54,416 nucleotides of DNA from assembly GCA_022181065.1 (NCBI GenBank), contig BQMY01000099.1:1-54416 (forward strand). The letters run 5' to 3'. Below are positions 11,941 through 54,416 of this stretch, one piece after another. The DNA is from Melioribacteraceae bacterium. GTDB lineage: Bacteria > Bacteroidota > Ignavibacteria > Ignavibacteriales > Melioribacteraceae. The notes under the pieces are model-generated. The model was not told the DNA's origin. It searched no databases and was given only the letters and a program-made list of their open reading frames with translations. Within the stretch, counting starts at the first letter, position 1; every line of letters begins with the position of its first letter. A program made the position numbers and the translations under genes.

Positions 11941-12957
11941 CTAGAAATTAACACCAATTGAGAACTTCTGTATTTCTTTTAGGCGACCGAAATCACCATA
12001 CATATAATCTACACGAATGCTCACATTTCCGACAAGCAGTTGTCTTAATCCTGCGCCCAAGGTAAATGTCTCTTCCGATTCGTCAAGGAAAAGAGATTTA
12101 TACCCGCCGCGGACAGAAAACCTGTCGTTAAACACATACTCACCACCAAGATTTATACTTTCGTAGTTATCGTTGGGGTGCGACGCGTCAACCGCAAGCA
12201 ATATTTTGTGCATACCTGAAAATACATTTTTGTAGGAAACACCCACTTTAAAACCGAGTGGAAGATCCCACTCTTCGGTATATAAATTAGCCGGAATACG
12301 ACCATTGTTACCGGAAGACTCAGGTTCAGCATCGTACAATATTGTTGTGCTGGTACCCGCCAACTGCATTTTCGGGCCAAAGTTTGTTATAGACATACCA
12401 AGTGTAAATCCTTTGAACGGAGTGTCATACAGAATACCCATATCGAGGGCTAACGCGATATCACTCATTCTCCAGATGCTCTGATATATAACTTTCGGGT
12501 TAAAACCAATAGAGAAATTATCTGTAAGGTTCATCGCCCAGGCAACACTGAAAGCCACATCCCTCGCGGAAAAGGTTTCACCTGTTCCATCAGGATTATC
12601 AATTGTTGTAACTTTCATGTCACCAATATCAGAGTTGATCAAACTGAGGCCTATAGCCCCGAAACCGCCAAGATTATAGTTTACGCCTATAAAATCGTAA
12701 CCGATATCCGCGATCCATGTTGTGTGATCGACCATTACACCATTTTCAATTCTTGCCAGACCCGCAACGTTCCAGTAAAGCGCTGACTGGTCATCAGCTA
12801 CCGCAACGAATGCGCTGCCCATACCGGATGCTCTCGCACCCTGACTAATATTCAAAAACTGTGCAGCGGTAGTTCCCCTTTTCGATACGCTAGACTGCGC
12901 AAAAAGAGTTATCGAAAGTGAAAGTACCACAAAAATATTTATTAAAATTCGGTTCAT
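11941..12957 (-). CDS. PorV/PorQ-family outer-membrane barrel protein
   Basis: About 338 residues. The frame begins with tandem GTG codons at 12969, but the ATG at 12957 starts a clean signal peptide (MNRILINIFVVLSLSITLFA). The N-terminal signature AAQFLNISQGARASGMGSAF followed by ADDQSALYWNVAGLA is the hallmark of PorV/PorQ (UPF0164-like) proteins, which are 14-stranded barrels; PorV carries T9SS substrates to the attachment step. The rest is alternating beta strands ending in Phe. It lies 16 bases after the large Asp-rich gene and 2 before GH9. Such paralogs are often encoded next to T9SS cargo, so this one may serve the neighbours rather than the whole secretome; that is an inference. Confidence 0.85.
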   Translation of the reverse strand: MNRILINIFVVLSLSITLFAQSSVSKRGTTAAQFLNISQGARASGMGSAFVAVADDQSALYWNVAGLARIENGVMVDHTTWIADIGYDFIGVNYNLGGFGAIGLSLINSDIGDMKVTTIDNPDGTGETFSARDVAFSVAWAMNLTDNFSIGFNPKVIYQSIWRMSDIALALDMGILYDTPFKGFTLGMSITNFGPKMQLAGTSTTILYDAEPESSGNNGRIPANLYTEEWDLPLGFKVGVSYKNVFSGMHKILLAVDASHPNDNYESINLGGEYVFNDRFSVRGGYKSLFLDESEETFTLGAGLRQLLVGNVSIRVDYMYGDFGRLKEIQKFSIGVNF

Positions 12958-12973
12958 TTCTTTCACCACCCGC

Positions 12974-40640: not shown

Positions 40641-42332
40641 TCACATATACGCCCTGCGCAATTTTTCGCGATCCAGACTGTTGACGAGATCAAACTCTTC
40701 GTCGTAAACTTTCTCCTCGTCGCCGTAATATTTATTTTCCGAGCTATCCCACTGTTTTTCCGTTTTTACATTCGCCCCGGAAAGCACAGCCAGTTTTTCC
40801 ACCACGATGTTGTTGCCGGTCTCCATATCAACTTTCCCCTTGATGAGATAAGGTCCCATCGACATTGTAAGCTCGGCGTATTCAGCGTAAACTTTGGGGA
40901 AAAGCACCGCTTCGAACGTACCAGTCAGGTCTTCCAGCGAAAGGAATTTCATTATTTCCCCCGAACGTGTTTTAATACGTTTAGCCGTCATGAACCACCC
41001 CACCATCTTCACCGTTTTACCATCGTACTTGTGGAGGTCGGCTGCTTTTGTGACAGATTTTTTATTCACCGCGTCAAAAAATTCCAGCGGATGCCGCGAT
41101 ACCATATACCCGAATGTTTCATACTCAATGGAGCAGATTTCCTCAATGCTGTATTGGGTTTCGGTCACTATCTCCTTCTCCAGCCGGAACATGTCGGCGG
41201 CAAACAAATCGTTGTAACTTTCATCAAGCAGCTTCCTGTGGTGGAAGTATATATCAAGCAGACGCATAAGTGTTGGACGCGTATGCTTAAAACAATCCAT
41301 AGCGCCGCACCTGATAAGTATCGCGCACTCTTCGTAACCAATGCGTGTACGGATTATAAAATCGGCGAGCGACATAAATTCGCCATCCTTCTCCCGCTCG
41401 GCAATGATACGTAAAGCCGAATTCCGCGAGAAGTTTTTTATCGCCATAAACCCGATACGTATTTTCTTTTTGCGAGCCTTGTAATCGTACTCGCTCATAT
41501 TTACATCAGGGAGAAAAATTTTAATTCCCATACGTTTGCTCTCCTGCATGTAAACCGCCGCCGAATAATAGCCTCCCCTGTTGCTGAGCACACTCGCCAT
41601 AAACTCGGCGGGATGATGTACCTTCAGGTACGCCACCTGGAACGAAAGCAGCGCGAACGAAGCGCTGTGAGCCTTGCAGAAAGCGTATCCGGCGAAAGAC
41701 TCAATCTGCCGCCACAACTCTTTGGCGATTTTATCGGAAATATTCCTCTCCGCGCACGAGTCATAAAACTTGCGGGTGAGTTTGTGCATCGCGTCTTTCG
41801 AGCGCATTTTTCCACTCATTGCGCGGCGCAGCAGGTCCGATTCCTCAAGCGAAAGTCCGGCAATATGATGCGCCACTTTTATCACGTCCTCCTGGTAGAT
41901 CATTACACCGTAAGTTTCACCGAGATATTTTTCCATTTCGGGCAGAAGGTATTTACGGCGTTTGGGATCGCGGTGGCGGGCGACAAACTCCTGCATCATA
42001 CCGCTTTCGGCAACACCGGGACGTATAACGGAACTCGCCGCGGTAAGCATCTCGAACGTATCGCAATTGAGCCTCTTCAGGAGTGAGCGCATCCCGGGCG
42101 ATTCGATGTAAAAGCACCCGATAGTATTCCCTTCGCGCATCATCTTTTTTGTGGCGGGGTCTTCGAAAAGCATGCGGTAGTCGTAGATATCGAAATCAAC
42201 CCCTTCCCCCTTGCCGGGCAGAGGTTTATATATAACCGGAACCACCTCCTTTTTACCTTTCGGGAGACGGTAGGTTTTCATATCGAGTATCGGTTTTTTA
42301 CCGCTTTTTATGTCGAGAATATCGCTTGCCAT
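40641..42332 (-). CDS. DnaE-type error-prone polymerase, C-terminal half only
   Basis: 563 residues that align by eye with the second half of the DnaE2/ImuC-like polymerases of Bacteroidota: NTIGCFYIESPGMRSLL, SSVIRPGVAESGMM, YGVMIYQEDVIKVAHHIAGL, LLRRAMSGK, IESFAGYAFCKAHSASFALL and the OB-fold region near the end. The PHP domain, the early palm and all three catalytic aspartates of DnaE (E. coli 401, 403 and 555) are missing, so it cannot polymerise alone. Clear homology starts near residue 45; the first 44 residues are a basic stretch I cannot place. A LexA-like palindrome lies 10 bases before the ATG, as if the shortened gene kept or acquired an SOS promoter. The gene is visibly more GC-rich than its neighbours (41821-41880 has 35 of 60 G or C). 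A decayed remnant or a non-catalytic partner are both possible. Confidence 0.8.
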   Translation of the reverse strand: MASDILDIKSGKKPILDMKTYRLPKGKKEVVPVIYKPLPGKGEGVDFDIYDYRMLFEDPATKKMMREGNTIGCFYIESPGMRSLLKRLNCDTFEMLTAASSVIRPGVAESGMMQEFVARHRDPKRRKYLLPEMEKYLGETYGVMIYQEDVIKVAHHIAGLSLEESDLLRRAMSGKMRSKDAMHKLTRKFYDSCAERNISDKIAKELWRQIESFAGYAFCKAHSASFALLSFQVAYLKVHHPAEFMASVLSNRGGYYSAAVYMQESKRMGIKIFLPDVNMSEYDYKARKKKIRIGFMAIKNFSRNSALRIIAEREKDGEFMSLADFIIRTRIGYEECAILIRCGAMDCFKHTRPTLMRLLDIYFHHRKLLDESYNDLFAADMFRLEKEIVTETQYSIEEICSIEYETFGYMVSRHPLEFFDAVNKKSVTKAADLHKYDGKTVKMVGWFMTAKRIKTRSGEIMKFLSLEDLTGTFEAVLFPKVYAEYAELTMSMGPYLIKGKVDMETGNNIVVEKLAVLSGANVKTEKQWDSSENKYYGDEEKVYDEEFDLVNSLDREKLRRAYM

Positions 42333-42485: not shown

Positions 42486-42974
42486 TCAAACTCTATCGGG
42501 GTTTTCCTGATCAATTGACCATTTCAGAGGATTTTGCTCAATATATAATCTGACTTCATATAATTCCCTCTCGTTTCTGATAATTCGATCGAAAAAACTA
42601 CGCTGCCAGACCGGAGCCCCAGGTGTACCTCTTTCGAGATTTATTTTCTTTGCTGAATAGGACTTTAGTTGTCTTATGATTTCTGTTAAAGGAACAGTAG
42701 ATTTATTTACCGGATACGAAGGGAAATTTAATTGCGCAATCCCGTGAAAATGATTTGGCATAATACAGTAAGAATCGAGCATTATCCCCTCATTAAAATT
42801 CGGTAAATCGAGCCATACGCTATTAAGAATTTCCCCATATTGGGTGAGACAATTTTTATCATTAACAATTTTACTTAATAAACATTTGCGCTGATGCGTT
42901 ACGAATGTGAAAAAATAAAACCCTTCTTGAGCATAATTATAATTATTCAGGCGTGGAGATTTTCGATTCGGCAT
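42486..42974 (-). CDS. REP-associated tyrosine transposase (RAYT, IS200-like Y1 family)
   Basis: 162 residues from the ATG at 42974; the frame extends upstream to 43049, but that part runs through the right-hand REP palindrome and is not homologous. Opening PNRKSPRLNNYNY, then FFTFVTHQRKCLL, the metal-binding HUH motif MPNHFHGI, the catalytic-tyrosine helix LTEIIRQLKSYSAKKI (Tyr in QLKSYS), and VWQRSFFDRIIRNERELYEV with YIEQNP near the end, all typical of RAYT proteins. These enzymes nick single-stranded DNA at REP hairpins and are thought to spread them. Here REP palindromes lie on both sides in inverted orientation, so the gene and its substrate sites are together. Confidence 0.92.
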   Translation of the reverse strand: MPNRKSPRLNNYNYAQEGFYFFTFVTHQRKCLLSKIVNDKNCLTQYGEILNSVWLDLPNFNEGIMLDSYCIMPNHFHGIAQLNFPSYPVNKSTVPLTEIIRQLKSYSAKKINLERGTPGAPVWQRSFFDRIIRNERELYEVRLYIEQNPLKWSIDQENPDRV

Positions 42975-43011
42975 TGTATTTCTAATTTTTGTTGATACCC
43001 TCGTAAAAAAA

Positions 43012-43033
43012 GGGAGGGTTACTGACCCTCCCC
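43012..43033. repeat. REP palindrome, right of the RAYT gene
   Basis: GGGAGGGTTACTGACCCTCCCC, preceded by TAAAAAAA and followed by TAC. It is the inverted counterpart of the copy at 42449-42470 and includes the mirrored T/A flank. Confidence 0.75.
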
Positions 43034-43064
43034 TACAAAACATTTGCATAAGTGATTGTAAAGA

Positions 43065-43182: not shown

Positions 43183-46100
43183 CTATTTCATCAACATCAT
43201 TTTTTTGACGCTTGAATGTGAATTGCTGCCTGATACCGCTTTCATCTGAATGTGATAGAAATACATTCCCGACGCGTAACCTGAAGCGCTCCAGTTTACT
43301 TCGTAATAACCTGTTTCCTGAACTACATCAACCAAAGTTTCAACTTTCTGACCGAGCATATTGTAAATAGTTACAACAACACTGCTCGCTTCAGGAATCT
43401 GATATTTGATCGTTGTGGTCGGGTTGAACGGGTTAGGATAGTTCTGCGCCACTTCAAATGTTTTTGGAGTGAAATCAACTTCAACTTCAGTTTCAGCGAT
43501 GTAATTTTCGGTACCATCGTAATCCATCTGTTTCAACCGATAATAGACCGTACCGTTGTAGGCAACATCCTTGAACTGATCCATGAAGCTGTAGCTCTGC
43601 TGCTCGGATGTTGTACCCTTACCATCGATAAACTGCATTGACTCCCAATCACCATCGGTTTTACGCTCAACTTCAAAACCTTTGTTATTGGTTTCGGTTG
43701 CGGTTTTCCAGGTAACAGTAATCATATTATCACCTGTGCTTACCGTGAAGCTGGTCAACTCAACCGGAATCGGAGTAGATACCTCACTCAGGTTCGAATA
43801 CGCTGAAACTGTATCAGAATTATACGCGAATACCCGGTACGTATATTCTGTCAAAGGTTCAACAGTTGTGTCCTGATAAACTGAAATGTCAGCTATAACA
43901 GAATCAATTACCGCAAATGGCTCAACAGAAGTTGAATCACCCGTTTTACGTTCAATTTTGAATCCTGTTTCGTTGTCCGAGTTATCGACCCAGTTAAGTT
44001 CAACAGTTTCAAAATCCGGGGCAAAAGCCATTAATTCTGTTGGAGCGGCGATTGGCTCGGCAACTACAGAAAGCATTCCGGATACGTTGTTCGTACCATC
44101 CCAGAAGCCACCACCTGATTCGCTGTAACCGCCATAGAAAGTATCGCCTTCAAACTCGAAGCGGGTAGCGTAATAATAATCGCCCCGTGGCAATTCACTT
44201 CCGATGTATGCCATATACAAATCAGCATCTTCCACATCTTCAACATAAGCTGCCTCAACCCAGTTTGACCAAGATAGCGGATTTGTATTGGAAGTATTGT
44301 AACCAACGTAAGCGGTTACACCTGCTCCCTGTCCGGAACCGGATGTTAAGCCTTCAATGACAACCTTACCTGAAACCATCACCGAATCGTCCTTGAAAAT
44401 AATTGCATTTTCCGGTGATTCAAGGTTTACAAAACTAACTGAAAATGCAGTTGTGAAACTCCATGCGTCTGTCCAGTCACTCATTCCGGCATCATTAATA
44501 CTTTTAACTCTCCAGAAGTATTCTGTATCTCCACCAAGAGTAAGTGTCAAGGTTGTATCTCCAACTGTGCTGTCTGCAACAACCGAACTGAATGCATCAT
44601 CAGTTGCAACCTGAAGCTGATACTCGAGAGTATTTGACGAGCTATTCCAGACAAAAGGTACTTCGATTGGAACATCAACGGCACCATTTTCTGGAGAAAC
44701 CAATGAAGTAATTGTTGGTTCAACACTGTTAACCCAACCATCGGTGTACATTACCTCAATTATATTTCCTTCTGTGTCAGCAAATTCCGTCTGAGTTGTA
44801 TTTATCGCAAGATCAGAATATCCTCCGATATAAAGCATTTTCAACTCAACCATTGTACCATTTAATTGGGTAAAGCCATCAAGACCATCCCACGCTACTA
44901 CAAGTGTGCCGTTGACACCGTTTGCGAGAGCGCCTTCAAGTTGAGGATCAAAATTGATTGCTCTTCCCCACTGAAGAACTTCCGGATCATAGCCGACATT
45001 AAGTGTAATAGCGCCAACGTTGACCATATTTTCAACAACAACCGGAATGGTAACGCTATCACCAAATTCAGCAATAATCTCGGGTAAGATCACCTTTGCT
45101 TCCAATGGTTCGGTTATACTGAATGCGGCATCGGATATATCAAACAAGTTATCATTATTTGCGTCAATAACTTTAATTTTACATTCGTCGGAAATCGCGA
45201 GAGGAACGCTCCATGAATAGTTGAATGTTTCACGGCTGTTTGAAGAAGTAACTACTTCCAACCCTCTTCCGGATTTCTTTTGTGATTTTGAATTCAGGTT
45301 GCTGCTGTAATCCTGAACCATCGTTTCCCATGTAGCGCCGTTATCTGAAGAGAACTCAATATCAAATGAGCTTAATGCTATTGCATTCCACGTGATAGTC
45401 TGAGTTGTACCTGCAGGATAACTTTCACCTCCGTTTGGAACCACAACGGTTATCGAAGCGGACTGTGTAATCGCGAAGAAATCATCACTCATATCTGTCA
45501 AAGAGCCATTGTTCTGGTCAGTGATTCTAATCTTAACCTGACTCTCTTCCAGATTCGGTACTGTCCAGTTATAAGTTTCGGTAGAGGCACTGATGTTATC
45601 GTCAATCAAAACGTAAGACCCACCATCGTCAATAGTATATTCAATGGTTAACTCAGTTGCCCCGTCCTGTGCCCACGCGATTTCTTCAACGTCGCCACCG
45701 AGGAATGTTTCACCGCCATTCGGACTAAGAAGTGTAAGATAATTACCAACTGATGAGGAAACACTACCATCAACATATGTAGCCTCAAGTACGTTACCTT
45801 CAGTGTCAGCCAGTTCTGAAATATTCTCATTAAAATTAAGATCTGTTTCTCCGGCAACATAATCAAATACAAGATCGAATAATTTACCGTCGCCGATATT
45901 CGCGCCCGTAAATGTCGGACTTGCATCTGTCCAGGAAACAAGCACAGCATCACCGTTGATCGCCTGATTTATCAATATACCTGATTCAACTTCGCTATTG
46001 ATATTCTGAGCTTCAACAAACGAAAGTATTAACGGATTATATTCAAGACGTAATGTTATCGCGCCAATACCGTTAAAGCTAAACACATCAACGGGAACGG

Positions 46101-49100
46101 TAACCTGGGTTCCCGGTGCTCCTGAAACATCGCCAGCTTGTACAGTAAGCGGTAGTGGAATTGAAATCGTAAATACCGCGTCACTTACATCAGCGATTTC
46201 CGCAAAATCCGGTGTGGATATTCGTACCAGGGCTTCATCCGTGTTTACATCGGGAACTGTCCATGAGTAAGAACCATCAGAAGCGTTAACGCCGTCATCA
46301 ATGAAAATCCAGTCTGTACCATTGTTGGTTGAATATTCAAGTTCAACCGTATTTAACCCAACCTGAGTCCATGTGATATTTTCAGTAGTTCCCGCGATCC
46401 AGCTTTCACCACCATTTGGTGATGTTAAGGCAACAGAGGCGTTAAGACTGATACTGAATACTTCATCACTTTCATCAGTAATAGAAGCGTTGTTCATGTC
46501 AAACAAACGTACTTTTACTTCATCAGAACTTGTGTTAGGCAGCAACCATTCATATTCACCATCGGCCGCGGCAATACCATCAGCAATAAAGATCCAGTCT
46601 GTACCATTATTTATAGTATATTCCGCCTGAAGTATGTTTACGCCACCACTTGCCCATTTGATCATGGTATTTGTGTTTCCAAGCAGGGTTTCACCACCAT
46701 TAGGCTGTAAAACAACAATATATTCATTTACAGAACTTGTTACAGAACCATCTACATACTGAGCATCAAGGGGTTCACCTAATGTATTAGCAAGTTCACT
46801 AACCGAAGTATTGAATGTAAATTCGGAAGTACCGCCTGCATATTCAAATACCAAATCGAATAGCTTACCGTTACCTATATTCGCGCCTGTAAACGTAGGA
46901 CTATTATCAGTCCATGAGACTAAAACAGCATCACCATCAACAGCTTCGTTAATAAGTATTCCTGATTCAACTTCGCTGTTAATATTCTGCGCTTCAACGA
47001 AAGTGAGCATAAGAGGATTATATTCCATTCGCAATGTAACAGCGCCAATTTCGTTGAATGCTGTTACATTTACAGGCATAGTAACCTGAGTTCCCGGAAC
47101 ACCGCTTATATCATCAGCGGAAACACTTAGAACCTCAGGCTCAAGAATTGTGAATACAGCATCAGATTCGTCAGTAAGGGTTCCATTATCGACATCGGTT
47201 ACCTTTACTTTTGCTTCGGTTGTTGGAGTATTCGGCACAGTCCAGTTATAGGAACCATCAGCCGTTGTACTTTCTTCAATCACCAACCAGTCGATACCGT
47301 TGTTGGTAGTATATTCCAGTTTGACGTTTTCAAGTCCGGCACTTTCATATGTGATTTCAGAAGTAGTTTCCGCAGTAATCTCTTCACCACCATTAGGTGC
47401 GACAAGAGTAATAAATGGATTTACGATTGTAAATACAGCATCACTAACATCTGTAACCAGAGGATTGTTAGTGCTTGTCAATCGCACAAGCGCTTCCTCT
47501 GTTTCCTTAGCGGGTACAGTCCAGACATAGTTACCATCGACAGCATTAACATCAGTAGCAACGGAGTTCCAGTCAGTACCATTATTAGTTGAATACTCGA
47601 TATTAATTTTGTCAACCGCGCTGCTCTGCCACAAGATTCCGTATGTTTCCCCGGAAACGAGTGTCTCGCCACCGTTAGGCTGAGTAACCTGAATAACTCC
47701 TTCAGCGGAAATTGTAAAGACCGCGTCACTTACGTCCTCAGCCTCAACATTATCAGCATCGCTCACTCTTACTAAAGCGTTGAGAGTTGAAGGAGCCGGA
47801 ATTTCCCACGCAAAACTACCGGTTGCGGGAGTTGAAGCGATCACATCACTCCAGTCAGTACCGTTATTCGTGGAATATTCAATTTTGACATTTGTTATAT
47901 CATAGGTTTCGTAAATTATATTTTCAGTTGTACCAACTTCCCAAATCTCGCCACCATTCGGTGAAGACACCAAAACCTGTACAGGATATAACGCGCCATT
48001 ATCAAGAGATACAGATAGTACATTGCCCAGTACATCGGAAACTTCTGTTTCAGAAGCATTAAAAGTTATTGCCTGTTCACCGTCTGCGGGCGTACCATTA
48101 AATACAAGTTTGAGATCGAACATCTTGTCATCTTCAATGGAGGTACCTGTCAAATCATCCCAGGCAAAAGTAAAGACTCCGTTAACCGCGTTTACAAGTG
48201 GATTGGCAAGATTACCATTAAGATTTTCAATACCAACATACTCTACAACCGCAGGATCAAACTCAATTTTAAGTGTTATAGCGCCAACTTCCAATAAATC
48301 TGTTGCCGTTACCGGAACCAAAACTTCATCGCCTGCAGACAATTCATCTAATGTCCCGATTGCAAGCTGTACCGATTTGACCGAAAATACTGAGTCACTT
48401 ACATCAGTAACCGAACTGTTTTCGTTGTCAGAAACCCTCACAAGCATCTCTTCGCTGTCAATATCGGGAACTGTCCATGTGAATCCCTGATTGGTTCCTC
48501 CTTCATCAATCATATTCCATGATGAACCGTTATCAGAGGAATATTCCACATCAAACATAAATACACCGTTGGCAGTCCATTCAATTTCCTGTTGAGAACC
48601 GGCTATAAATACCTCTCCGCCATTTGGTGAGGTAAGAGTAATAGAGGGTAATGAAATAGTAAATACCGCGTTACTAACATCGGTAACCGCCGCATTGTCA
48701 ACATCAGTAACTCTCACCAATGCTTGCTCTGTCGGGTTGTTTGGAACAGTCCAGTTATAAGTACCTGATGAAGCCGCCACACTAGCTTCAATGGTGCTCC
48801 AGTCTGTACCATTATTAGTAGAAAGTTCAATTTTAATATTTGTAACATTAACAGAATTCCATGTGATATCATGTGTGGAACCAACAAGATAATCTTCACC
48901 ACCGTTGGGCGATGTAATACTAATAGTAGGTTCTTCGGCAATAGTGAAAGCCGCGTCACTAACATCAGAATAACCGTCACGCGCTGATTGTGTAATTCTA
49001 ACAAGATTTTCCGCGCCCGGAGCATCCGGTACTGTCCATGCCAAACTGCCCGAGGCAGCATTTACACCCGCCTGAATAGTATTCCAGTTTGTACCGTTAT

Positions 49101-50907
49101 TTGTGGAGTATTCTATATCGATACTGGAAATATTAAAAGCTTCCCAGGTAATATTTTCTTCATCACCAACCTGCCATATTTCACCACCGTTTGGTGCAGT
49201 TACCAGTAACGGATATGGTGTTACAACACCATCATCATAAGATGTCGCAAGCGCGTTACCTGCTATATCGGCGATTTCAGTTTCTGCCTGATCAAAGGCT
49301 AAACCCTGAAAACCATCACCGGGAGTACCATTAAATGTAAAGTTAAGATCTGCCAACTTATCGTCACTAATGGTAGTACCGTTAATATTATCCCATGAAA
49401 GAGTAACCACTCCATTAGCTTCGTTAATAGTAGCTGAGGAAATGTTAGAATTCAGGTTTTCAAATCCATCGTAGGTCATGTTGGTATTATCAAAATTCAT
49501 TTTGATAGTAATAGCACCAACGTTAAGAAGATTTACACCATCGAGGTTGAATGTTAATGATTCACCCTGATTAACATCCTGAAAATCGTTTAAGGTCAAA
49601 CTAACAGAAGCAACTGTAAACTGAGCGTCACTAACATCATTAACGCCTGCGTCATCAACATCAGAAATTCGGACAAGGAGATTCGAGCCTGATAATGCTG
49701 TTGGCACTAACCATTCGTAGCTTCCGTCACTCGGAGTAGATGCTTCGATTGAATTCCAGTTTGAGCCGTTATCGTCTGAATAATCTATTGCGACATTAGT
49801 CACTCCAACACTGGTCCATTCAATATTAGTAGCTCCACCCGCAACAACAGTTTCACCGCCATTTGGAGCTGTAACAGTAATTGAAGGGGCGAGAATACTA
49901 AATACCGCGTCACTCTGATCGGTTACAGAACCATTCTCCACCGCTGTTAATCGAACTAATCCTTCGGTGGTTGGAGTTTCGGGGACGGTCCACTCATATG
50001 TTCCAGAACTCGCCGCTACAGATGCTACTACTTCATTCCAGTCTGTACCATTATTGGTTGAATACTCAATTTTTACATTGGTTACAGCCGCGCTGCTCCA
50101 TGTAATATTTTGAGTACTTCCCTGAAGCCATTCTTCTCCTCCGTTTGGAGATGTAATATTAATTAATGGCTGTTCTGTAATGGTAAAAACCGCGTCACTC
50201 TGATCATTTTGAGCTGTATTGGAAGTGTTTGAAATACGAACCAACGCTTCTGATGTCGCGTTATTCGGAACACTCCACTCATAAGAGCCACCATCAGCTG
50301 AAACACTGTTTTCAATTGAAATCCAGTTTGTACCATTGTTAGTGGAATATTCAAGGTTGAGTTGATTTATGTTAAATGTTTCCCATGTAATATTTTGGGT
50401 TCCACCGCCTTGCCAGACTTCCCCGCCATTCGGCGCGGTTAACAACACCGGATAGGGTGTAACAAAACCATCTGTATAATTTGTAGCGAGTGCTCCCCCA
50501 AGTTCATCGGAAACACCACTATTTTCGTTAAAAACAAGGTCTTCCTGACCATCACCGGCAGTACCGGTGTAAGTAAAAACGAGATCAAGAATTTTTGTAT
50601 CGCCTTCGTTAAGGGCCGCGAGTCCTAACCAGTCAATTGTGAATTTGCCATTTTCAAAAGTTATAAGGGCATCATCCACAACATTGGGGTTGATATTTAT
50701 CGCGTTTCCGCCGGTAAGTTTTGTATCATCGTAATCAACAATGAAAGTAAAACTACCAACGCCGTTAAAGTTCTCTACATTCAGCGGAAGTGTTACCTGT
50801 TCACCCGGCTGCACGTCGGTTTGATTACCGAGTGTAACATTGATATCCTGGGCGAGTAAACTTCCTGTAAACAAGAGAGATAAGAATAGAAAAACTATTT
50901 TTTTCAT
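43183..50907 (-). CDS. Giant secreted protein with six cohesin-like domains and T9SS tail
   Basis: About 2574 residues from the ATG at 50907 (a TTG at 50931 is also open, but the ATG begins the signal peptide MKKIVFLFLSLLFTGSLLAQ). Six cohesin-like domains, each with a VGAITLKxxYD-type core and a DGxV ending, map to about 50449-50853, 49210-49606, 47970-48374, 46720-47140, 45743-46158 and 44722-45104. Between them are thirteen roughly 93-residue SPNGGE...YSTNNGTDW...WTVP sandwiches of the Kre9/KNH-like type, arranged 3-3-3-2-2. After cohesin six come a fibronectin-like domain, an unrecognised domain (about 44060-44450), two more fibronectin-like domains and a T9SS sorting domain (QNYPNPFNPTTTIKYQIP, terminal Lys). 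Cohesins bind dockerins in cellulosomes, so this could be a surface scaffold; cohesin-like domains also occur in unrelated adhesins. Confidence 0.85.
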   Translation of the reverse strand: MKKIVFLFLSLLFTGSLLAQDINVTLGNQTDVQPGEQVTLPLNVENFNGVGSFTFIVDYDDTKLTGGNAININPNVVDDALITFENGKFTIDWLGLAALNEGDTKILDLVFTYTGTAGDGQEDLVFNENSGVSDELGGALATNYTDGFVTPYPVLLTAPNGGEVWQGGGTQNITWETFNINQLNLEYSTNNGTNWISIENSVSADGGSYEWSVPNNATSEALVRISNTSNTAQNDQSDAVFTITEQPLINITSPNGGEEWLQGSTQNITWSSAAVTNVKIEYSTNNGTDWNEVVASVAASSGTYEWTVPETPTTEGLVRLTAVENGSVTDQSDAVFSILAPSITVTAPNGGETVVAGGATNIEWTSVGVTNVAIDYSDDNGSNWNSIEASTPSDGSYEWLVPTALSGSNLLVRISDVDDAGVNDVSDAQFTVASVSLTLNDFQDVNQGESLTFNLDGVNLLNVGAITIKMNFDNTNMTYDGFENLNSNISSATINEANGVVTLSWDNINGTTISDDKLADLNFTFNGTPGDGFQGLAFDQAETEIADIAGNALATSYDDGVVTPYPLLVTAPNGGEIWQVGDEENITWEAFNISSIDIEYSTNNGTNWNTIQAGVNAASGSLAWTVPDAPGAENLVRITQSARDGYSDVSDAAFTIAEEPTISITSPNGGEDYLVGSTHDITWNSVNVTNIKIELSTNNGTDWSTIEASVAASSGTYNWTVPNNPTEQALVRVTDVDNAAVTDVSNAVFTISLPSITLTSPNGGEVFIAGSQQEIEWTANGVFMFDVEYSSDNGSSWNMIDEGGTNQGFTWTVPDIDSEEMLVRVSDNENSSVTDVSDSVFSVKSVQLAIGTLDELSAGDEVLVPVTATDLLEVGAITLKIEFDPAVVEYVGIENLNGNLANPLVNAVNGVFTFAWDDLTGTSIEDDKMFDLKLVFNGTPADGEQAITFNASETEVSDVLGNVLSVSLDNGALYPVQVLVSSPNGGEIWEVGTTENIIYETYDITNVKIEYSTNNGTDWSDVIASTPATGSFAWEIPAPSTLNALVRVSDADNVEAEDVSDAVFTISAEGVIQVTQPNGGETLVSGETYGILWQSSAVDKINIEYSTNNGTDWNSVATDVNAVDGNYVWTVPAKETEEALVRLTSTNNPLVTDVSDAVFTIVNPFITLVAPNGGEEITAETTSEITYESAGLENVKLEYTTNNGIDWLVIEESTTADGSYNWTVPNTPTTEAKVKVTDVDNGTLTDESDAVFTILEPEVLSVSADDISGVPGTQVTMPVNVTAFNEIGAVTLRMEYNPLMLTFVEAQNINSEVESGILINEAVDGDAVLVSWTDNSPTFTGANIGNGKLFDLVFEYAGGTSEFTFNTSVSELANTLGEPLDAQYVDGSVTSSVNEYIVVLQPNGGETLLGNTNTMIKWASGGVNILQAEYTINNGTDWIFIADGIAAADGEYEWLLPNTSSDEVKVRLFDMNNASITDESDEVFSISLNASVALTSPNGGESWIAGTTENITWTQVGLNTVELEYSTNNGTDWIFIDDGVNASDGSYSWTVPDVNTDEALVRISTPDFAEIADVSDAVFTISIPLPLTVQAGDVSGAPGTQVTVPVDVFSFNGIGAITLRLEYNPLILSFVEAQNINSEVESGILINQAINGDAVLVSWTDASPTFTGANIGDGKLFDLVFDYVAGETDLNFNENISELADTEGNVLEATYVDGSVSSSVGNYLTLLSPNGGETFLGGDVEEIAWAQDGATELTIEYTIDDGGSYVLIDDNISASTETYNWTVPNLEESQVKIRITDQNNGSLTDMSDDFFAITQSASITVVVPNGGESYPAGTTQTITWNAIALSSFDIEFSSDNGATWETMVQDYSSNLNSKSQKKSGRGLEVVTSSNSRETFNYSWSVPLAISDECKIKVIDANNDNLFDISDAAFSITEPLEAKVILPEIIAEFGDSVTIPVVVENMVNVGAITLNVGYDPEVLQWGRAINFDPQLEGALANGVNGTLVVAWDGLDGFTQLNGTMVELKMLYIGGYSDLAINTTQTEFADTEGNIIEVMYTDGWVNSVEPTITSLVSPENGAVDVPIEVPFVWNSSSNTLEYQLQVATDDAFSSVVADSTVGDTTLTLTLGGDTEYFWRVKSINDAGMSDWTDAWSFTTAFSVSFVNLESPENAIIFKDDSVMVSGKVVIEGLTSGSGQGAGVTAYVGYNTSNTNPLSWSNWVEAAYVEDVEDADLYMAYIGSELPRGDYYYATRFEFEGDTFYGGYSESGGGFWDGTNNVSGMLSVVAEPIAAPTELMAFAPDFETVELNWVDNSDNETGFKIERKTGDSTSVEPFAVIDSVIADISVYQDTTVEPLTEYTYRVFAYNSDTVSAYSNLSEVSTPIPVELTSFTVSTGDNMITVTWKTATETNNKGFEVERKTDGDWESMQFIDGKGTTSEQQSYSFMDQFKDVAYNGTVYYRLKQMDYDGTENYIAETEVEVDFTPKTFEVAQNYPNPFNPTTTIKYQIPEASSVVVTIYNMLGQKVETLVDVVQETGYYEVNWSASGYASGMYFYHIQMKAVSGSNSHSSVKKMMLMK

Positions 50908-50920
50908 GAACTTTCCCGCT

Positions 50921-51640
50921 TTATTTAGCAACTAAAAATTTTCCGCTAAAACCTTTATGTGTAATATTTTTTCCTGTTGGAATAAATGAAAGTATGTAAA
51001 TCCCGTTAGCCAGCGATGAGATATCAAGCTTAATAATTTCACTGTAATCAGTGAAACTTTTATGATAAACTTCCTCTCCTGTGATTGAGTAAATCTTAAA
51101 GCTGCCCTGATATTTCTTCTTGCCGGCGGAAATGTATAAAAAATTTGCGCCCGGGTTAGGATAAAAGCTCATTTTACCTTCGGATTTGCTTTCTTCAATT
51201 CCCGTAAGTTGAGTAACTTTGCCATTTTCGAACAGTACATTTATAACTGTGCCCGATGTATCGGCAAATTCATTACCCTGAATAAAATTGAGCTCGCTTA
51301 CATTTCCATTAAAATTGAACTTCAAAAAAAAGAGTGTGTCAGATAAGAAATTTTCCCCTGAAAAATTTTCCCACGAAAGCAAAAAAATACCGTTGGAATA
51401 GTTGATAAAACTGCCTGAAAGTTTCTCCGACAGATTTTCATATCCAAGATATTCAAGTCCTTCCTGTGCCTCAATTTTAAGAGTTATTGCCCCGACACCG
51501 GTTAAATTTTGTGCCACAACAGGAACGGATACCTCCCCGCCCGCGGAACCAACAACAGGTAAACTTACCTTTGCGGATTGAGCGGAGAAATCAACCGTTA
51601 TTAAACTTATTAACAATATGTATAGATAAAGATTCCGCAT
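50921..51640 (-). CDS. Single cohesin-like domain protein with T9SS tail
   Basis: 239 residues: signal peptide 1-20, one cohesin-like domain about 23-150 (core VGAITLKIEAQEGLEYLGY, ending VLFENGKVTQ), a short linker, and a T9SS-type sorting domain with the short form FYPNPGANFLYI and a terminal Lys. It could display one cohesin at the surface, like an anchoring unit. It ends 13 bases before the ATG of the giant cohesin gene, so the two are probably one transcript. The ATG at 51640 has no clear ribosome site and follows a hairpin (51651-51674), so its translation may be low or coupled to processing. Confidence 0.8.
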   Translation of the reverse strand: MRNLYLYILLISLITVDFSAQSAKVSLPVVGSAGGEVSVPVVAQNLTGVGAITLKIEAQEGLEYLGYENLSEKLSGSFINYSNGIFLLSWENFSGENFLSDTLFFLKFNFNGNVSELNFIQGNEFADTSGTVINVLFENGKVTQLTGIEESKSEGKMSFYPNPGANFLYISAGKKKYQGSFKIYSITGEEVYHKSFTDYSEIIKLDISSLANGIYILSFIPTGKNITHKGFSGKFLVAK

Positions 51641-51650
51641 AAAATTATGA

Positions 51651-51674
51651 GGGAACCGGATAAATCCGATTCCC
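51651..51674 (-). other. Hairpin between the two upstream cohesin genes
   Basis: GGGAATCGGAT and ATCCGGTTCCC (minus strand) pair with one mismatch, 11 bases past the stop of the gene ending at 51686 and 11 bases before the next ATG. TTTT occurs downstream only after a gap, so it looks like a processing or attenuation hairpin. Confidence 0.55.
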
Positions 51675-51685
51675 CTACAATTAAA

Positions 51686-54416
51686 TTATTTAAGCAGAAT
51701 CATTTTTTGTGTTTTAACGAATGTCTGATTTTCAGATTTAGCGTAAATGCGGTAGAAGTAGATACCACTTGATACTCCCGAAGCATTCCACTGCAATTTG
51801 TAAGAACCTGCTTTTTGTTCCTGATCCATCAACTGAGTTACTTTTTCACCAACGGTGTTATAGATTTCAACAACAACTTTACTCTTCGAAGGAAGATCAT
51901 ATTCAATTGTTGTGCTCGGGTTGAACGGATTAGGATAGTTCTGACGTAATGAGAACTCTGTAGGTTTAACAACTTCAACTGTAAATGATGCGATTGAAGG
52001 ATCAGTTACTTCACCATTAGCGTTCGCGAATTCGGTGTATGATCCCATGTTCAATTGTAATGTTGAACCTGCTTCAAACTTCGCGGTTGGTTTGAATCTC
52101 AATACCATCAACGCGTCATCAGCTTCAAGTTTTACAGCGTCAAGTTCTGCCCACGATACTGTAACACGACCGTCAACATCATTGTAGATCGCTCCGTCCG
52201 CGACAAAATTAACACTTACAAGTTCCGCCATTTCAGTTGGATATTCAAACTGGAATGTGACCGCGCCAAGTTCGGTTGATTGTTTAACTACAACCGGTAC
52301 TTCAAATTCATCTTCAACATTTACATCAATTTTTCCCGCAAGAGGCATAGTAGCGAATTCCGCGGCTTTGGCAAGTGCCGGGCTGTAAGAACCATTCACA
52401 TCACCATAGCAGATACCCGCAAGATCCTGTACAACATCATCACCGTTAAGAGTGACCACTGGTGATTCAAATGCCCAGTCACCGGCAGGGAAAGAAGTGA
52501 TCAACTGTACAACTCTTCTTCTCACTACAAGAGCGTCAGTAGAGTTAACTGTAGATGAAGCGTTAACATCAGCAGCTTCCAGTTTCAGGTCTTCGAGAGT
52601 GATCAACTGTACAACATGACGTCTGATCAGTAACGCGTCAGTTGAGTTAACACCACCCCATTCGGTTTCACTTTCAGCAACAACATTATATTCGCCGTTA
52701 GGAACATCTGTAAACATATAGTTACCGGCACCATCGGTTGTTGTTTCAGCAACCATGTTGTCATCCTGATAGAGATAAACTGTTACACCACCAAGAGGTG
52801 AGTTGTCGCCATTATCATAAGTAACCATACCTGTAACGGCAAATGTAGAAGGTGCGATTGTAAATACAGCATCACTTACATCGTAAACCATCGCATCACT
52901 TGAATTTGAAACTTTAACCAAAGCTTCATTGGTAGGAGTATCCGGTACTGACCACATATAATCAGAACCAGTAGCGTTTTCAAGTATTGTATTCCAGTTC
53001 GCGCCGTTATCTGTTGAGTAAGCAAGGTCAACCATATCAAATCCGTTGGCTGCCCAGGTTATTTCATACATGTCACCCGCGCTTAATTCTTCACCGCCAT
53101 TAGGTGTTAGAAGTCTGATCGGCGCCAGTGAAACACTACCATCGAAATATGTTATTGTAATAGGATTACCAAGTACATCGGATACTTCACTGCCCGCTTC
53201 ATTAAACGTAACAGCACTTTCACCCGATACATACTCGAACTTAAGATCAAATAATTTGGCATTTCCAAAATTTATACCCTGAAGTGAGTTATCAACCCAG
53301 GAAATAAATATAGAACCGTCAGCGCCATTAACAAGAGCACCCGAGAACTGTGAATGAGTATTAGCCAATCCGACAAAATTTAATGCCGTATCATCATAAC
53401 CCAATTCAAGTGTAACCGCGCCGATACCATCAAATTCTGTAACATCTACAGGAACGAAAACTTCGTCACCCGGTAAACCTTCAACATCACCTGCTGTCAT
53501 GGTAACCGGCTCAACAACAGTAATATTTGAAGTTACATCGTCTGAAAGTAAACCATCGGATACTGTTACTGTGAATGAGAAATCACCAAGCTGAGTTGCC
53601 AATGGTGTCCATGAGAACATACCATCTTCTGTAAGGTTTGCGCCTGCCGGAAGATCATCACTTGAGAATGTAATATCATCTTCTTCGTCATCTACCGCAG
53701 TGTACGGGAATGAATATTCAAATGTCGCCGGAATTGTCACATCATCAATATAATTAACAAACGTTGGAGCTGTATTACCAGGAGTTGTAACTTCTGCAAC
53801 GTTACTATAATCTGATGATACATCATCAGCAACCGCTTTAACTCTGTAGTTATATGTTGTAAACTCTGCAACTGTTTCATCTGTGTATGATGTAACATCA
53901 GCACCAAGTTCAGCAATTACTTCATAAGCTTCTGTTGCGACTTCACGTTCAACGACAAAACCTGTTTCGTTATCACTATTGTCTGTCCACGCAAGATCAA
54001 CTGCGCCAAGAACAAGCGCTTCAGCCGTCAAATCTGTTGGAGCGTTTACAGTTACTGCTGTTTCACCAAAAGTAAGAGTAATATTTAGTGAGGTCAAAGC
54101 GGTGTTTGTAATTGCGAAGTTATAAGTACCGGGTCCGAAGGTTTCATTAACGAGAACCCCGCCGAAAGGATCCTGAACATTTGCTTCAACATTTTCAGGA
54201 ACGGTGAAATTAACATCATAACCGGTTGAGCCATCACCCAACTGCCATTTAAGAACATAATCTTTTGAACCTTCGAAAGTTTCGTCACCCTGACGGTAAT
54301 CAATTAACGAACCGGTGGTTCCATCAGGCAGAATCAATCTTGAATCAAATACGCCTGCTGGTGGGAGTGGAGGAAGCTCAGCTTCACCCAATGCCACGTC
54401 AATAGCATCAGTTGCT
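51686..54416 (-). CDS. Cohesin- and dockerin-like secreted protein with T9SS tail, 5' end outside the window
   Basis: Open to the window edge, so the N-terminus is missing. In order: an ELPPLPPAGVFDSRL opening seen in many T9SS proteins; a fibronectin-III domain; a cadherin-like Ig domain (DGMFSWTP); a cohesin-like domain (about 53125-53515); a TPNGGE sandwich; a carboxypeptidase-regulatory-like domain (TYDNGDNSPLGGVTVYLYQD); a dockerin-like segment (about 52500-52670) with two VNSTDAL repeats, the second with good calcium-loop spacing in ADVNASSTVNSTDALV; a third partial loop (GDVNGSYSP); a second cohesin-like domain (about 51985-52360); and a T9SS sorting domain (QNYPNPFNPSTTIEYDLP). Having both halves of a cohesin-dockerin pair in one chain could allow self-assembly or linking to the giant protein; pairing is untested. 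Confidence 0.85.
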   Translation of the reverse strand, partial: ATDAIDVALGEAELPPLPPAGVFDSRLILPDGTTGSLIDYRQGDETFEGSKDYVLKWQLGDGSTGYDVNFTVPENVEANVQDPFGGVLVNETFGPGTYNFAITNTALTSLNITLTFGETAVTVNAPTDLTAEALVLGAVDLAWTDNSDNETGFVVEREVATEAYEVIAELGADVTSYTDETVAEFTTYNYRVKAVADDVSSDYSNVAEVTTPGNTAPTFVNYIDDVTIPATFEYSFPYTAVDDEEDDITFSSDDLPAGANLTEDGMFSWTPLATQLGDFSFTVTVSDGLLSDDVTSNITVVEPVTMTAGDVEGLPGDEVFVPVDVTEFDGIGAVTLELGYDDTALNFVGLANTHSQFSGALVNGADGSIFISWVDNSLQGINFGNAKLFDLKFEYVSGESAVTFNEAGSEVSDVLGNPITITYFDGSVSLAPIRLLTPNGGEELSAGDMYEITWAANGFDMVDLAYSTDNGANWNTILENATGSDYMWSVPDTPTNEALVKVSNSSDAMVYDVSDAVFTIAPSTFAVTGMVTYDNGDNSPLGGVTVYLYQDDNMVAETTTDGAGNYMFTDVPNGEYNVVAESETEWGGVNSTDALLIRRHVVQLITLEDLKLEAADVNASSTVNSTDALVVRRRVVQLITSFPAGDWAFESPVVTLNGDDVVQDLAGICYGDVNGSYSPALAKAAEFATMPLAGKIDVNVEDEFEVPVVVKQSTELGAVTFQFEYPTEMAELVSVNFVADGAIYNDVDGRVTVSWAELDAVKLEADDALMVLRFKPTAKFEAGSTLQLNMGSYTEFANANGEVTDPSIASFTVEVVKPTEFSLRQNYPNPFNPSTTIEYDLPSKSKVVVEIYNTVGEKVTQLMDQEQKAGSYKLQWNASGVSSGIYFYRIYAKSENQTFVKTQKMILLK

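What the first reader, a model, noticed from the sequence alone, without database searches (positions are those of the whole stretch)
43183..50907. Six-cohesin giant protein as a possible surface scaffold delivered by type IX secretion
Six cohesin-like domains in one chain is scaffoldin-like, yet here each pair is separated by two or three Kre9/KNH-like sandwiches instead of short linkers, and export is by T9SS instead of S-layer anchoring. Two neighbouring genes encode further cohesin-like domains. This would be a cellulosome-like or adhesive architecture not familiar to me from Ignavibacteriota-type genomes.
Basis: partly seen in the sequence, partly recalled or inferred. Interest (0 to 1): 0.75.

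Follow-up and report, generated by a model that had tools for sequence, protein, structure and literature searches.

The report
Six-cohesin surface scaffold, not a cellulosome
A giant exported protein with six socket-like domains is encoded next to a protein that carries a matching kind of plug, and the same plug-then-sockets gene pairing recurs in related bacteria, which points to a way of assembling cell-surface proteins that is not the cellulose-digesting cellulosome.

Summary
The 2574-aa protein at 43183-50907 (-) has six cohesins, 13 Kre9-like spacers and a type IX secretion tail; the small gene at 50921-51640 adds one cohesin, and the truncated gene at 51686-54415 two more plus a dockerin. 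A cellulosome is not supported: searches of the 4.9-Mb genome find ten cohesins and only two dockerins, both on cohesin-bearing, non-enzymatic type IX proteins; the window's GH5, GH9 and one GH16 enzyme have their own type IX tail and no dockerin. Instead this is one example of a recurrent pair: a dockerin gene followed directly by a gene with one to six cohesins (45 pairs). On a tree those cohesins sort by the dockerin type of the upstream gene (3 changes, minimum 2, shuffled mean 36.8). Predicted folds: a type-I-like cohesin and a dockerin apparently inserted in a transthyretin-like domain. Best reading: a non-cellulosomal, type IX-exported dockerin-cohesin surface assembly. Binding is inferred, not shown. 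Melioribacter roseus, a cultured relative, carries a version, so it is testable. New variant of a known kind.

The parts
43183..50907 (-). Giant six-cohesin T9SS protein ('B', 2574 aa): signal peptide, 6 cohesins, 13 Kre9-like spacers, fn3-like stretches, T9SS tail
50461..50838 (-). Cohesin 1
   Evidence: (76 bits)
49612..50442 (-). three Kre9/KNH-like spacer modules
49222..49599 (-). Cohesin 2
   Evidence: (71 bits)
48379..49203 (-). three Kre9/KNH-like spacer modules
47992..48363 (-). Cohesin 3; modelled together with two following spacers
   Evidence: 86 bits; model pLDDT 92.5; Z 17.7 to CaCohA2 6kgd
47146..47970 (-). three Kre9/KNH-like spacer modules
46741..47127 (-). Cohesin 4
   Evidence: 86 bits; 72% identical to cohesin 5
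46165..46713 (-). two Kre9/KNH-like spacer modules
45760..46146 (-). Cohesin 5
   Evidence: (91 bits)
45115..45735 (-). two Kre9/KNH-like spacer modules, the second split by an insert
   Evidence: three HMM pieces
44731..45093 (-). Cohesin 6
   Evidence: (86 bits)
43186..43458 (-). type IX secretion C-terminal domain of the giant
   Evidence: Por_Secre_tail; TIGR04183 34 bits, cut-off 23
50921..51640 (-). Small T9SS protein with one cohesin (239 aa)
51215..51568 (-). cohesin of the small protein
   Evidence: 64 bits, model built with it; not found by Pfam
51686..54415 (-). Dockerin protein ('A'), N-terminus cut by the contig end: weak fn3, He_PIG, cohesin, Kre9-like, TTR-like/dockerin, cohesin-like, T9SS tail
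53132..53503 (-). first cohesin of A
   Evidence: 88 bits
52856..53113 (-). Kre9/KNH-like module of A
52400..52837 (-). transthyretin-like (CarboxypepD_reg) domain with the dockerin apparently inserted before its last strands
   Evidence: model m03a76ed2e713, pLDDT 94, pTM 0.90; TTR-like folds align across model residues 1-145; sequence test mixed
52508..52669 (-). dockerin, WGGVNSTDAL type
   Evidence: Dockerin_1 32.7 bits; 76 bits with the local model, built with it
51986..52336 (-). divergent cohesin that follows the dockerin
   Evidence: 67 bits; Z 13.8 to 5nrk
51689..51955 (-). type IX secretion C-terminal domain of A

Best explanation
This is a non-cellulosomal cohesin-dockerin locus. 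Three adjacent same-strand genes encode T9SS-exported proteins: A (51686-54415, dockerin plus two cohesins), a one-cohesin protein, and the six-cohesin giant. Shown by sequence or prediction: domains, T9SS tails, gene order, recurrence of 'dockerin gene then cohesin gene' in relatives, sorting of those cohesins by dockerin type, and a cohesin fold close to dockerin-binding cohesins. Inferred: A's dockerin plugs into cohesins of the two downstream proteins, the giant offers six sockets spaced by 2-3 sandwich modules, and so several copies of A (a non-catalytic Ig-type chain here) are clustered on the surface, for adhesion or a fibrous coat rather than for polysaccharide digestion.
For: Domain content and order. 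Same three-gene set in a second genome. Of the 80 best dockerin matches in 196 genomes, 77 were recognised by my model, 43 have a cohesin in the same ORF, 32 have a cohesin-bearing ORF directly downstream on the same strand within 700 bp (69 have over 1000 bases of room there), and 53 have a cohesin in the same or an adjacent ORF; in the window's family 22 of 25 recognised. In the fetched loci 45 of 70 dockerin-bearing T9SS ORFs with room are followed by a cohesin ORF, against 4 of 45 T9SS ORFs with neither domain (loci were chosen around these genes). Cohesins of the genes downstream of a dockerin gene (45 pairs, 96 rows) need 3 changes of dockerin-type label on the tree (minimum 2; shuffled mean 36.8; 0 of 200 as low), the S type being one clade at 100/100; my first labels gave 5 against 35.3. 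The giant's cohesins fall with the W type, the type of the neighbouring dockerin. Genome-level co-occurrence: 90 both, 21 cohesin only, 30 dockerin only, 55 neither. Fold: Z 17.7 to CaCohA2 from a dockerin complex, 15-17 to other type I cohesins. SprA present.
Against: No binding has been measured or modelled as a complex. A itself has cohesins, so its dockerin may bind within A or between copies of A. The first calcium loop of the dockerin lacks the usual acidic residues (SETEWGGVNSTD, read by eye), so the plug may be weak or one-sided. The one-cohesin gene, not the giant, is A's direct neighbour. 24 of the 77 recognised dockerins have no cohesin in the same or adjacent ORF; 21 genomes have cohesin without a dockerin match. 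In the named genomes the control is no lower than the pairing: 2 of 6 T9SS ORFs with neither domain are followed by a cohesin ORF, against 21 of 48 with dockerin. Cohesin-only T9SS ORFs are followed by another cohesin ORF in 21 of 62 cases, so cohesin genes cluster anyway. The label tree shares ancestry and near-copies, so the shuffle test is lenient. Adhesion or coat function rests only on the absence of catalytic domains here and on the beta-helix and Ig content of relatives.
Confidence: 0.6

Rival explanations
1. A true cellulosome-like enzyme scaffold: dockerin-bearing glycoside hydrolases dock on the giant.
For: Six cohesins in one chain; a cellulose/beta-glucan locus lies in the same window. 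In relatives of another family of the order, W-type dockerins sit on enzymes: of 10 tail-less dockerin proteins scanned, 7 have a polysaccharide deacetylase domain, 2 a DMFA2_C domain and 1 a C39 peptidase domain; one search adds a GH18, a deacetylase and a CotH protein.
Against: Own genome (4.9 Mb, completeness 100 by the tool's figure): only two dockerins by three searches, neither on an enzyme. The GH9, GH5 and one GH16 enzyme of the window carry their own T9SS tail and no dockerin. No CBM in the giant. Melioribacter roseus, same lineage, was reported to have no dockerin on its cellulases (PMC3534657, passages read).
Confidence: 0.07
2. The cohesins are only structural beta-sandwiches (as the Kre9-like modules are) in long adhesins, and the dockerin is a calcium-binding stiffener that packs within A; there is no intermolecular docking.
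For: Cohesins alternate with other sandwich spacers; COH-DOC-COH-T9 in single proteins without a cohesin neighbour is common; the A model has high pTM (0.90) over dockerin and cohesin; degenerate first calcium loop; cohesin genes cluster with each other anyway (21 of 62).
Against: Does not explain the directed gene pairing or the sorting of downstream cohesins by upstream dockerin type, nor tail-less dockerin enzymes directly followed by cohesin-T9 genes (L085, L146).
Confidence: 0.24
3. A polymerises with itself: the dockerin of one A binds a cohesin of the next, and the giant is a branching or end point of that fibre.
For: A carries both dockerin and cohesin in window and relatives (58 of 103 dockerin ORFs end DOC-COH-T9).
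Against: The cohesin after the dockerin is the most diverged of the ten (18-27% identity to the other nine), and those of W-type A proteins form their own group in the tree, as if it had lost or changed the docking role.
Confidence: 0.09

Closest known systems
Non-cellulosomal cohesins and dockerins (Peer et al. 2009, recalled, not held; Archaeoglobus fulgidus cohesin 2xdh)
   Same: Cohesin and dockerin modules in neighbouring or the same proteins without cellulases (recalled); fold match Z 16.8
   Different: Here six cohesins with 2-3 spacer sandwiches between them, T9SS tails, and a recurrent dockerin-then-cohesin gene order
Ca. Stygibacter (Cloacimonadota) cellulosome-like complex, PMC8542988 (passages read)
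   Same: Large non-catalytic multi-cohesin protein with a conserved C-terminal domain for surface attachment, proposed from metagenome-assembled genomes
   Different: There dockerins are on GH18, GH57 and peptidases and the scaffoldin has CBM domains; here no dockerin enzyme and no CBM
Clostridial cellulosome (CipA/CipC-type scaffoldin, type I cohesins)
   Same: Type-I-like cohesin fold, several cohesins in one chain
   Different: No dockerin-bearing glycoside hydrolases found, no CBM, T9SS tail instead of S-layer anchoring
Melioribacter roseus locus (G008, L094; identified by its 3,300,414-bp length)
   Same: A 2189-aa dockerin-cohesin-T9 protein with three genes of 2, 2 and 1 cohesins downstream
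   Different: Another dockerin type (Q); no Kre9-like spacers found in these ORFs; the published genome paper reports no cellulosome

Membership tests
Cohesin (PF00963) | score over Pfam cut-off | tested here: met
   135 bits whole protein, 5 stretches; in the genome search 5 of the giant's 6 exceed 24.1 bits, one scores 20.6
Cohesin (PF00963) | cohesin fold | tested here: met
   Z 17.7, 127 residues, rmsd 1.8 to 6kgd; one of the six modelled
Cohesin (PF00963) | binds a dockerin | not testable with these tools
   no complex prediction or assay
Type I cohesin | closer to type I than to types II/III | tested here: inconclusive
   Z 15-18 for type I, 12-13 for type II, 13-15 for type III entries; consistent with type I, but types are defined by binding as well
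Dockerin type I (PF00404) | score over cut-off with two repeats | tested here: met
   32.7 bits, cut-off 22.9; two NSTDAL segments
Dockerin type I (PF00404) | two calcium loops with the canonical ligands | tested here: inconclusive
   second loop DVNASSTVNSTD mostly keeps them, first loop SETEWGGVNSTD does not; read by eye, motif recalled
Cellulosome | multi-cohesin scaffoldin | tested here: met
Cellulosome | dockerin-bearing glycoside hydrolases in the genome | tested here: not met
   two dockerins, both on non-enzymatic proteins
Cellulosome | carbohydrate-binding module on the scaffoldin | tested here: not met
   none at E 0.01 in Pfam
T9SS cargo | C-terminal sorting domain over cut-off | tested here: met
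   Por_Secre_tail on all three proteins (31.7, 44.2, 42.4 bits, cut-off 27)
T9SS cargo | T9SS translocon in the genome | tested here: met
   SprA_N 176.5 bits; PorV family protein at 11941-12969; other components not searched
T9SS cargo | surface location | not testable with these tools
   needs fractionation or imaging

The most novel reading that the evidence does not exclude
Ignavibacteriota and other Bacteroidota-group bacteria share an undescribed, modular T9SS-exported coupling system with at least three separate dockerin-cohesin pairings (here called W, Q and S), of which two (Q and S) lie side by side in one genome (G127): they join giant beta-helix or Ig chains to multi-socket anchors, tether subtilases, and in some lineages hold tail-less enzymes that reach the surface only by docking to a T9SS-exported cohesin protein. 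The W dockerin is a domain inserted in a transthyretin-like sandwich, a presentation for which one paper search found nothing.
Probability: 0.35. Interest if true: 0.8.

Novelty: new variant of a known kind. Interest (0 to 1): 0.6.

Why it matters
Cohesin-dockerin pairing is known mainly as the joint of cellulosomes. A recurrent gene pair in which the partner is a non-catalytic giant or a protease would mean that the joint is a more general surface-assembly device in bacteria with type IX secretion, would explain many unannotated giant proteins in these phyla, and would supply sets of possibly orthogonal plug-and-socket pairs. Genome surveys that require a dockerin-bearing glycoside hydrolase (PMC11557425; passages read) cannot see it. 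A cultured relative, Melioribacter roseus, carries a version, so the claim can be tested.

Tried and rejected
Cellulosome reading: rejected for this genome.

Intergenic hairpins between A and B genes as a shared regulatory feature: 21 of 45 pairs have a hairpin below -10 kcal/mol (median -9.6), but so do 18 of 59 control T9SS gene ends (median -6.1), and none was found in L098; the terminator scan around the locus found no more than shuffles (9 against 8.6). Left as a lead.

Dockerin insertion by sequence: with the dockerin cut out, the CarboxypepD_reg profile match of three proteins extended in one only (to position 77 of 82; the other two stopped at 57). The insertion rests on the model and its structural matches. 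Whether dockerin and following cohesin touch in the model could not be seen (no coordinates or error matrix).

Mapping the dockerin-binding face residue by residue: only looked at by eye (T30 and W68 of alignment A5 are invariant in all nine window cohesins); contact positions of known complexes are recalled and not tested.

Peer et al. 2009 could not be opened. Paper searches for print precedents. Their lists are capped (for example 20 of 132); in the rows listed I saw no T9SS cohesin-dockerin system of Ignavibacteriota. Only PMC8542988, PMC3534657, PMC11557425 and PMC12484212 were opened, and only passages were read.

Limits of the counts: my cohesin, dockerin and tail models were built from the window and from the fetched loci themselves. 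Three of the top 80 dockerin matches were not recognised and count as misses. Some of the 20 of 24 cohesin-less dockerin ORFs without a T9SS tail are cut by contig ends. Two tree rows (L146, L087) were relabelled Q to W after the first tree, because their dockerin letters read NATDAL and my text pattern had missed them; row L150, labelled W by pattern only, remains out of place.

Full report
Observation. The ORF 43183-50931 (-) is 2582 aa from a TTG and 2574 aa from the more likely ATG at 50907. It has six cohesins, 13 Kre9/KNH-like modules between them (3, 3, 3, 2, 2), fn3-like stretches (by eye) and a type IX secretion (T9SS) tail. The six cohesins are 27-41% identical to each other except cohesins 4 and 5 (72%), so most are old copies. 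Both neighbours have cohesins, one of them missed by Pfam, and the dockerin at 52511-52657 is over the Pfam cut-off. The upstream protein A is cut by the contig end.

Genome. Searches of the window's own genome (4.90 Mb in 164 contigs, completeness 100 by the tool) with Pfam and with alignments find ten cohesins, nine in this locus and one on contig C82, and two dockerins, one in A and one in the C82 protein; the two remaining dockerin matches, one from each alignment search, are at E 0.43 and 0.27. The C82 protein has DUF4397, a cohesin, a dockerin and a T9SS tail. No enzyme carries a dockerin by these models. The same window holds a beta-glucan/cellulose locus (GH16+CBM6, GH16, GH3, GH9, GH5+CBM6, transporters, a TonB receptor); its GH9, GH5 and one GH16 protein carry their own T9SS tail and no dockerin in Pfam. 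So the six-cohesin protein is not, by this evidence, an enzyme scaffold. SprA is in the genome.

Relatives. Among 196 genomes searched (the window's included), 111 have cohesin and 120 dockerin matches (E up to 0.01 and 0.1), and they co-occur (90 both, 21 cohesin only, 30 dockerin only, 55 neither; odds ratio 7.9; shared ancestry not corrected). I fetched stretches around clusters, first chosen mostly because both domains lay on one contig, then those of the 80 best dockerin matches not yet held (which also include six cohesin regions). Annotated with models built from these domains, the loci show a directed order: a gene whose product ends in dockerin, often cohesin, and T9SS tail, followed at once by a gene with one to six cohesins, usually with a T9SS tail. 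Census of the 80 best dockerins: 77 recognised; 43 with cohesin in the same ORF; 32 with a cohesin-bearing ORF directly downstream (same strand, under 700 bp; 69 have over 1000 bases of room); 53 with cohesin in the same or adjacent ORF; 24 recognised ones with neither, 20 of them without a T9SS tail. In the fetched loci 45 of 70 dockerin-bearing T9SS ORFs are followed by a cohesin ORF against 4 of 45 T9SS ORFs with neither domain and 21 of 62 with cohesin only (the loci are not a random sample). In named genomes found by a W-dockerin pattern (78 loci kept of 306 stretches) the figure is 21 of 48, with 2 of 6 for neither; loci with the pair include records titled Bacteroidales, Lentimicrobiaceae, Melioribacteraceae and Ignavibacteriales.

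Partner types. Dockerins fall by eye into W (WGGVNSTDAL, behind a CarboxypepD_reg domain), Q (GDVxxxGxVQAYDAS) and S (GDANGDLxINVLDI, on subtilases where scanned) types. The 96 cohesins of genes downstream of a dockerin gene (45 pairs) sort by that type on a maximum-likelihood tree: 3 label changes, minimum 2, shuffled mean 36.8, none of 200 shuffles as low; S is one clade at 100/100. With my first, partly wrong labels it was 5 changes against 35.3. Genome G127 has both Q and S pairs (L080, L143), with cohesins in different clades, so the sorting is not only by organism. The cohesins of the giant, of the small protein and the first of A, in the window and in L098, form one group (99) inside the W part of a quicker tree, matching the W dockerin of A. 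This is what docking with co-evolution would give; it does not prove binding.

Cargo. N-terminal parts of dockerin proteins differ: right-handed beta-helix (L080, L110), repeats that look beta-helical to the eye but have no such Pfam hit (L092, L096), subtilase (L112, L127, L144), and, in another family of the order, tail-less polysaccharide deacetylases, a GH18, DMFA2_C and CotH proteins, some directly followed by a cohesin-T9 gene (L085, L146). In the window A has He_PIG, Kre9-like and weak fn3 modules. So the same joint seems to serve several uses, enzymes among them, in other genomes.

Structure. The model of cohesin 3 with two spacers (pLDDT 92.5, 10 rows) matches cohesins best: Z 17.7 to CaCohA2 from a dockerin complex, 15-17 to clostridial type I cohesins, 16.8 to the non-cellulosomal Archaeoglobus cohesin, 12-13 to type II. 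The model of A's tail (289 aa, pLDDT 94, pTM 0.90, 42 rows) has strands 2-55, three helices 65-109, strands 121-143, and a cohesin 165-289 (Z 13.8 to 5nrk). The transthyretin-like domain of human carboxypeptidase D (5aq0, 82 residues) aligns over 78 residues spanning model residues 1-145 (Z 10.9, rmsd 1.7), most simply explained if the helical dockerin is inserted before the last strands. A sequence test of this was mixed.

Taxonomy. Loci of the window's family coincide in contig length with records titled Melioribacteraceae bacterium CHB1 (75,728 bp) and Ignavibacteriales Tobar12.5m-G23 (276,472 bp), and G008 has the length given for Melioribacter roseus, 3,300,414 bp. So the window is probably from Melioribacteraceae, Ignavibacteriota. 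The M. roseus genome paper says that no cellulase gene has dockerin or scaffoldin domains and takes this as absence of cellulosomes. Its locus in L094 fits: cohesins exist, and its one dockerin match is on the 2189-aa protein, whose Pfam hits include no cellulase.

Mechanism. Most likely (0.60): A, the small protein and the giant are exported by T9SS; A's dockerin docks in cohesins of the other two; the giant spaces six sockets along a chain of sandwiches; the result is a clustered non-catalytic surface assembly. Export, docking, stoichiometry and adhesion are inferred. Rivals: structural sandwiches without docking (0.24), self-polymerising A (0.09), true cellulosome (0.07).

Novelty. Cohesin-dockerin modules outside cellulosomes are known (Peer et al. 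2009, recalled), and a T9SS-linked scaffoldin was proposed for Ca. Stygibacter. I did not meet the recurrent dockerin-then-cohesin gene pair with matching types, the six-cohesin chain with sandwich spacers or the inserted dockerin in the listings of the papers searched, capped lists from a library that lacks most subscription journals. New variant of a known kind.

Noticed in passing
window 3018-26361: Beta-glucan/cellulose use locus on the - strand: GH16+CBM6, GH16, SSF, GH3, GH9, PorV-family protein, TonB receptor, CBM9 protein, SSF, GH_cc, GH5+CBM6; four with T9SS tails, none with a dockerin.
   Followed up: partly
window 42486-43049: IS200-like transposase domain (Y1_Tnp) just downstream of the giant.
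   Followed up: no
window 40641-42332: 563-aa DNA polymerase III alpha finger/HHH/OB protein that seems to lack the N-terminal part of a full alpha subunit; broken gene or small polymerase not examined.
   Followed up: no
window 51650-51675 and A-B gaps of relatives: Strong hairpins, many without a clear T-run, after the stop of A in many pairs (19 of 45 at -15 kcal/mol or below), possibly setting the ratio of A to B; control gene ends also have hairpins (18 of 59 below -10) and none was found in L098.
   Followed up: partly
L114, L118, L119, L122, L124, L125, L137, L115, L116: Tail-less polysaccharide deacetylases and a GH18 with a W-type dockerin in relatives of another family: a possible chitin-related, cellulosome-like set.
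   Followed up: partly
L112, L127, L133, L143, L144: Dockerin-T9SS genes of S type (subtilases where scanned: L112, L127, L144) followed by genes with weak cohesins (19-35 bits), a separate cohesin clade.
   Followed up: partly
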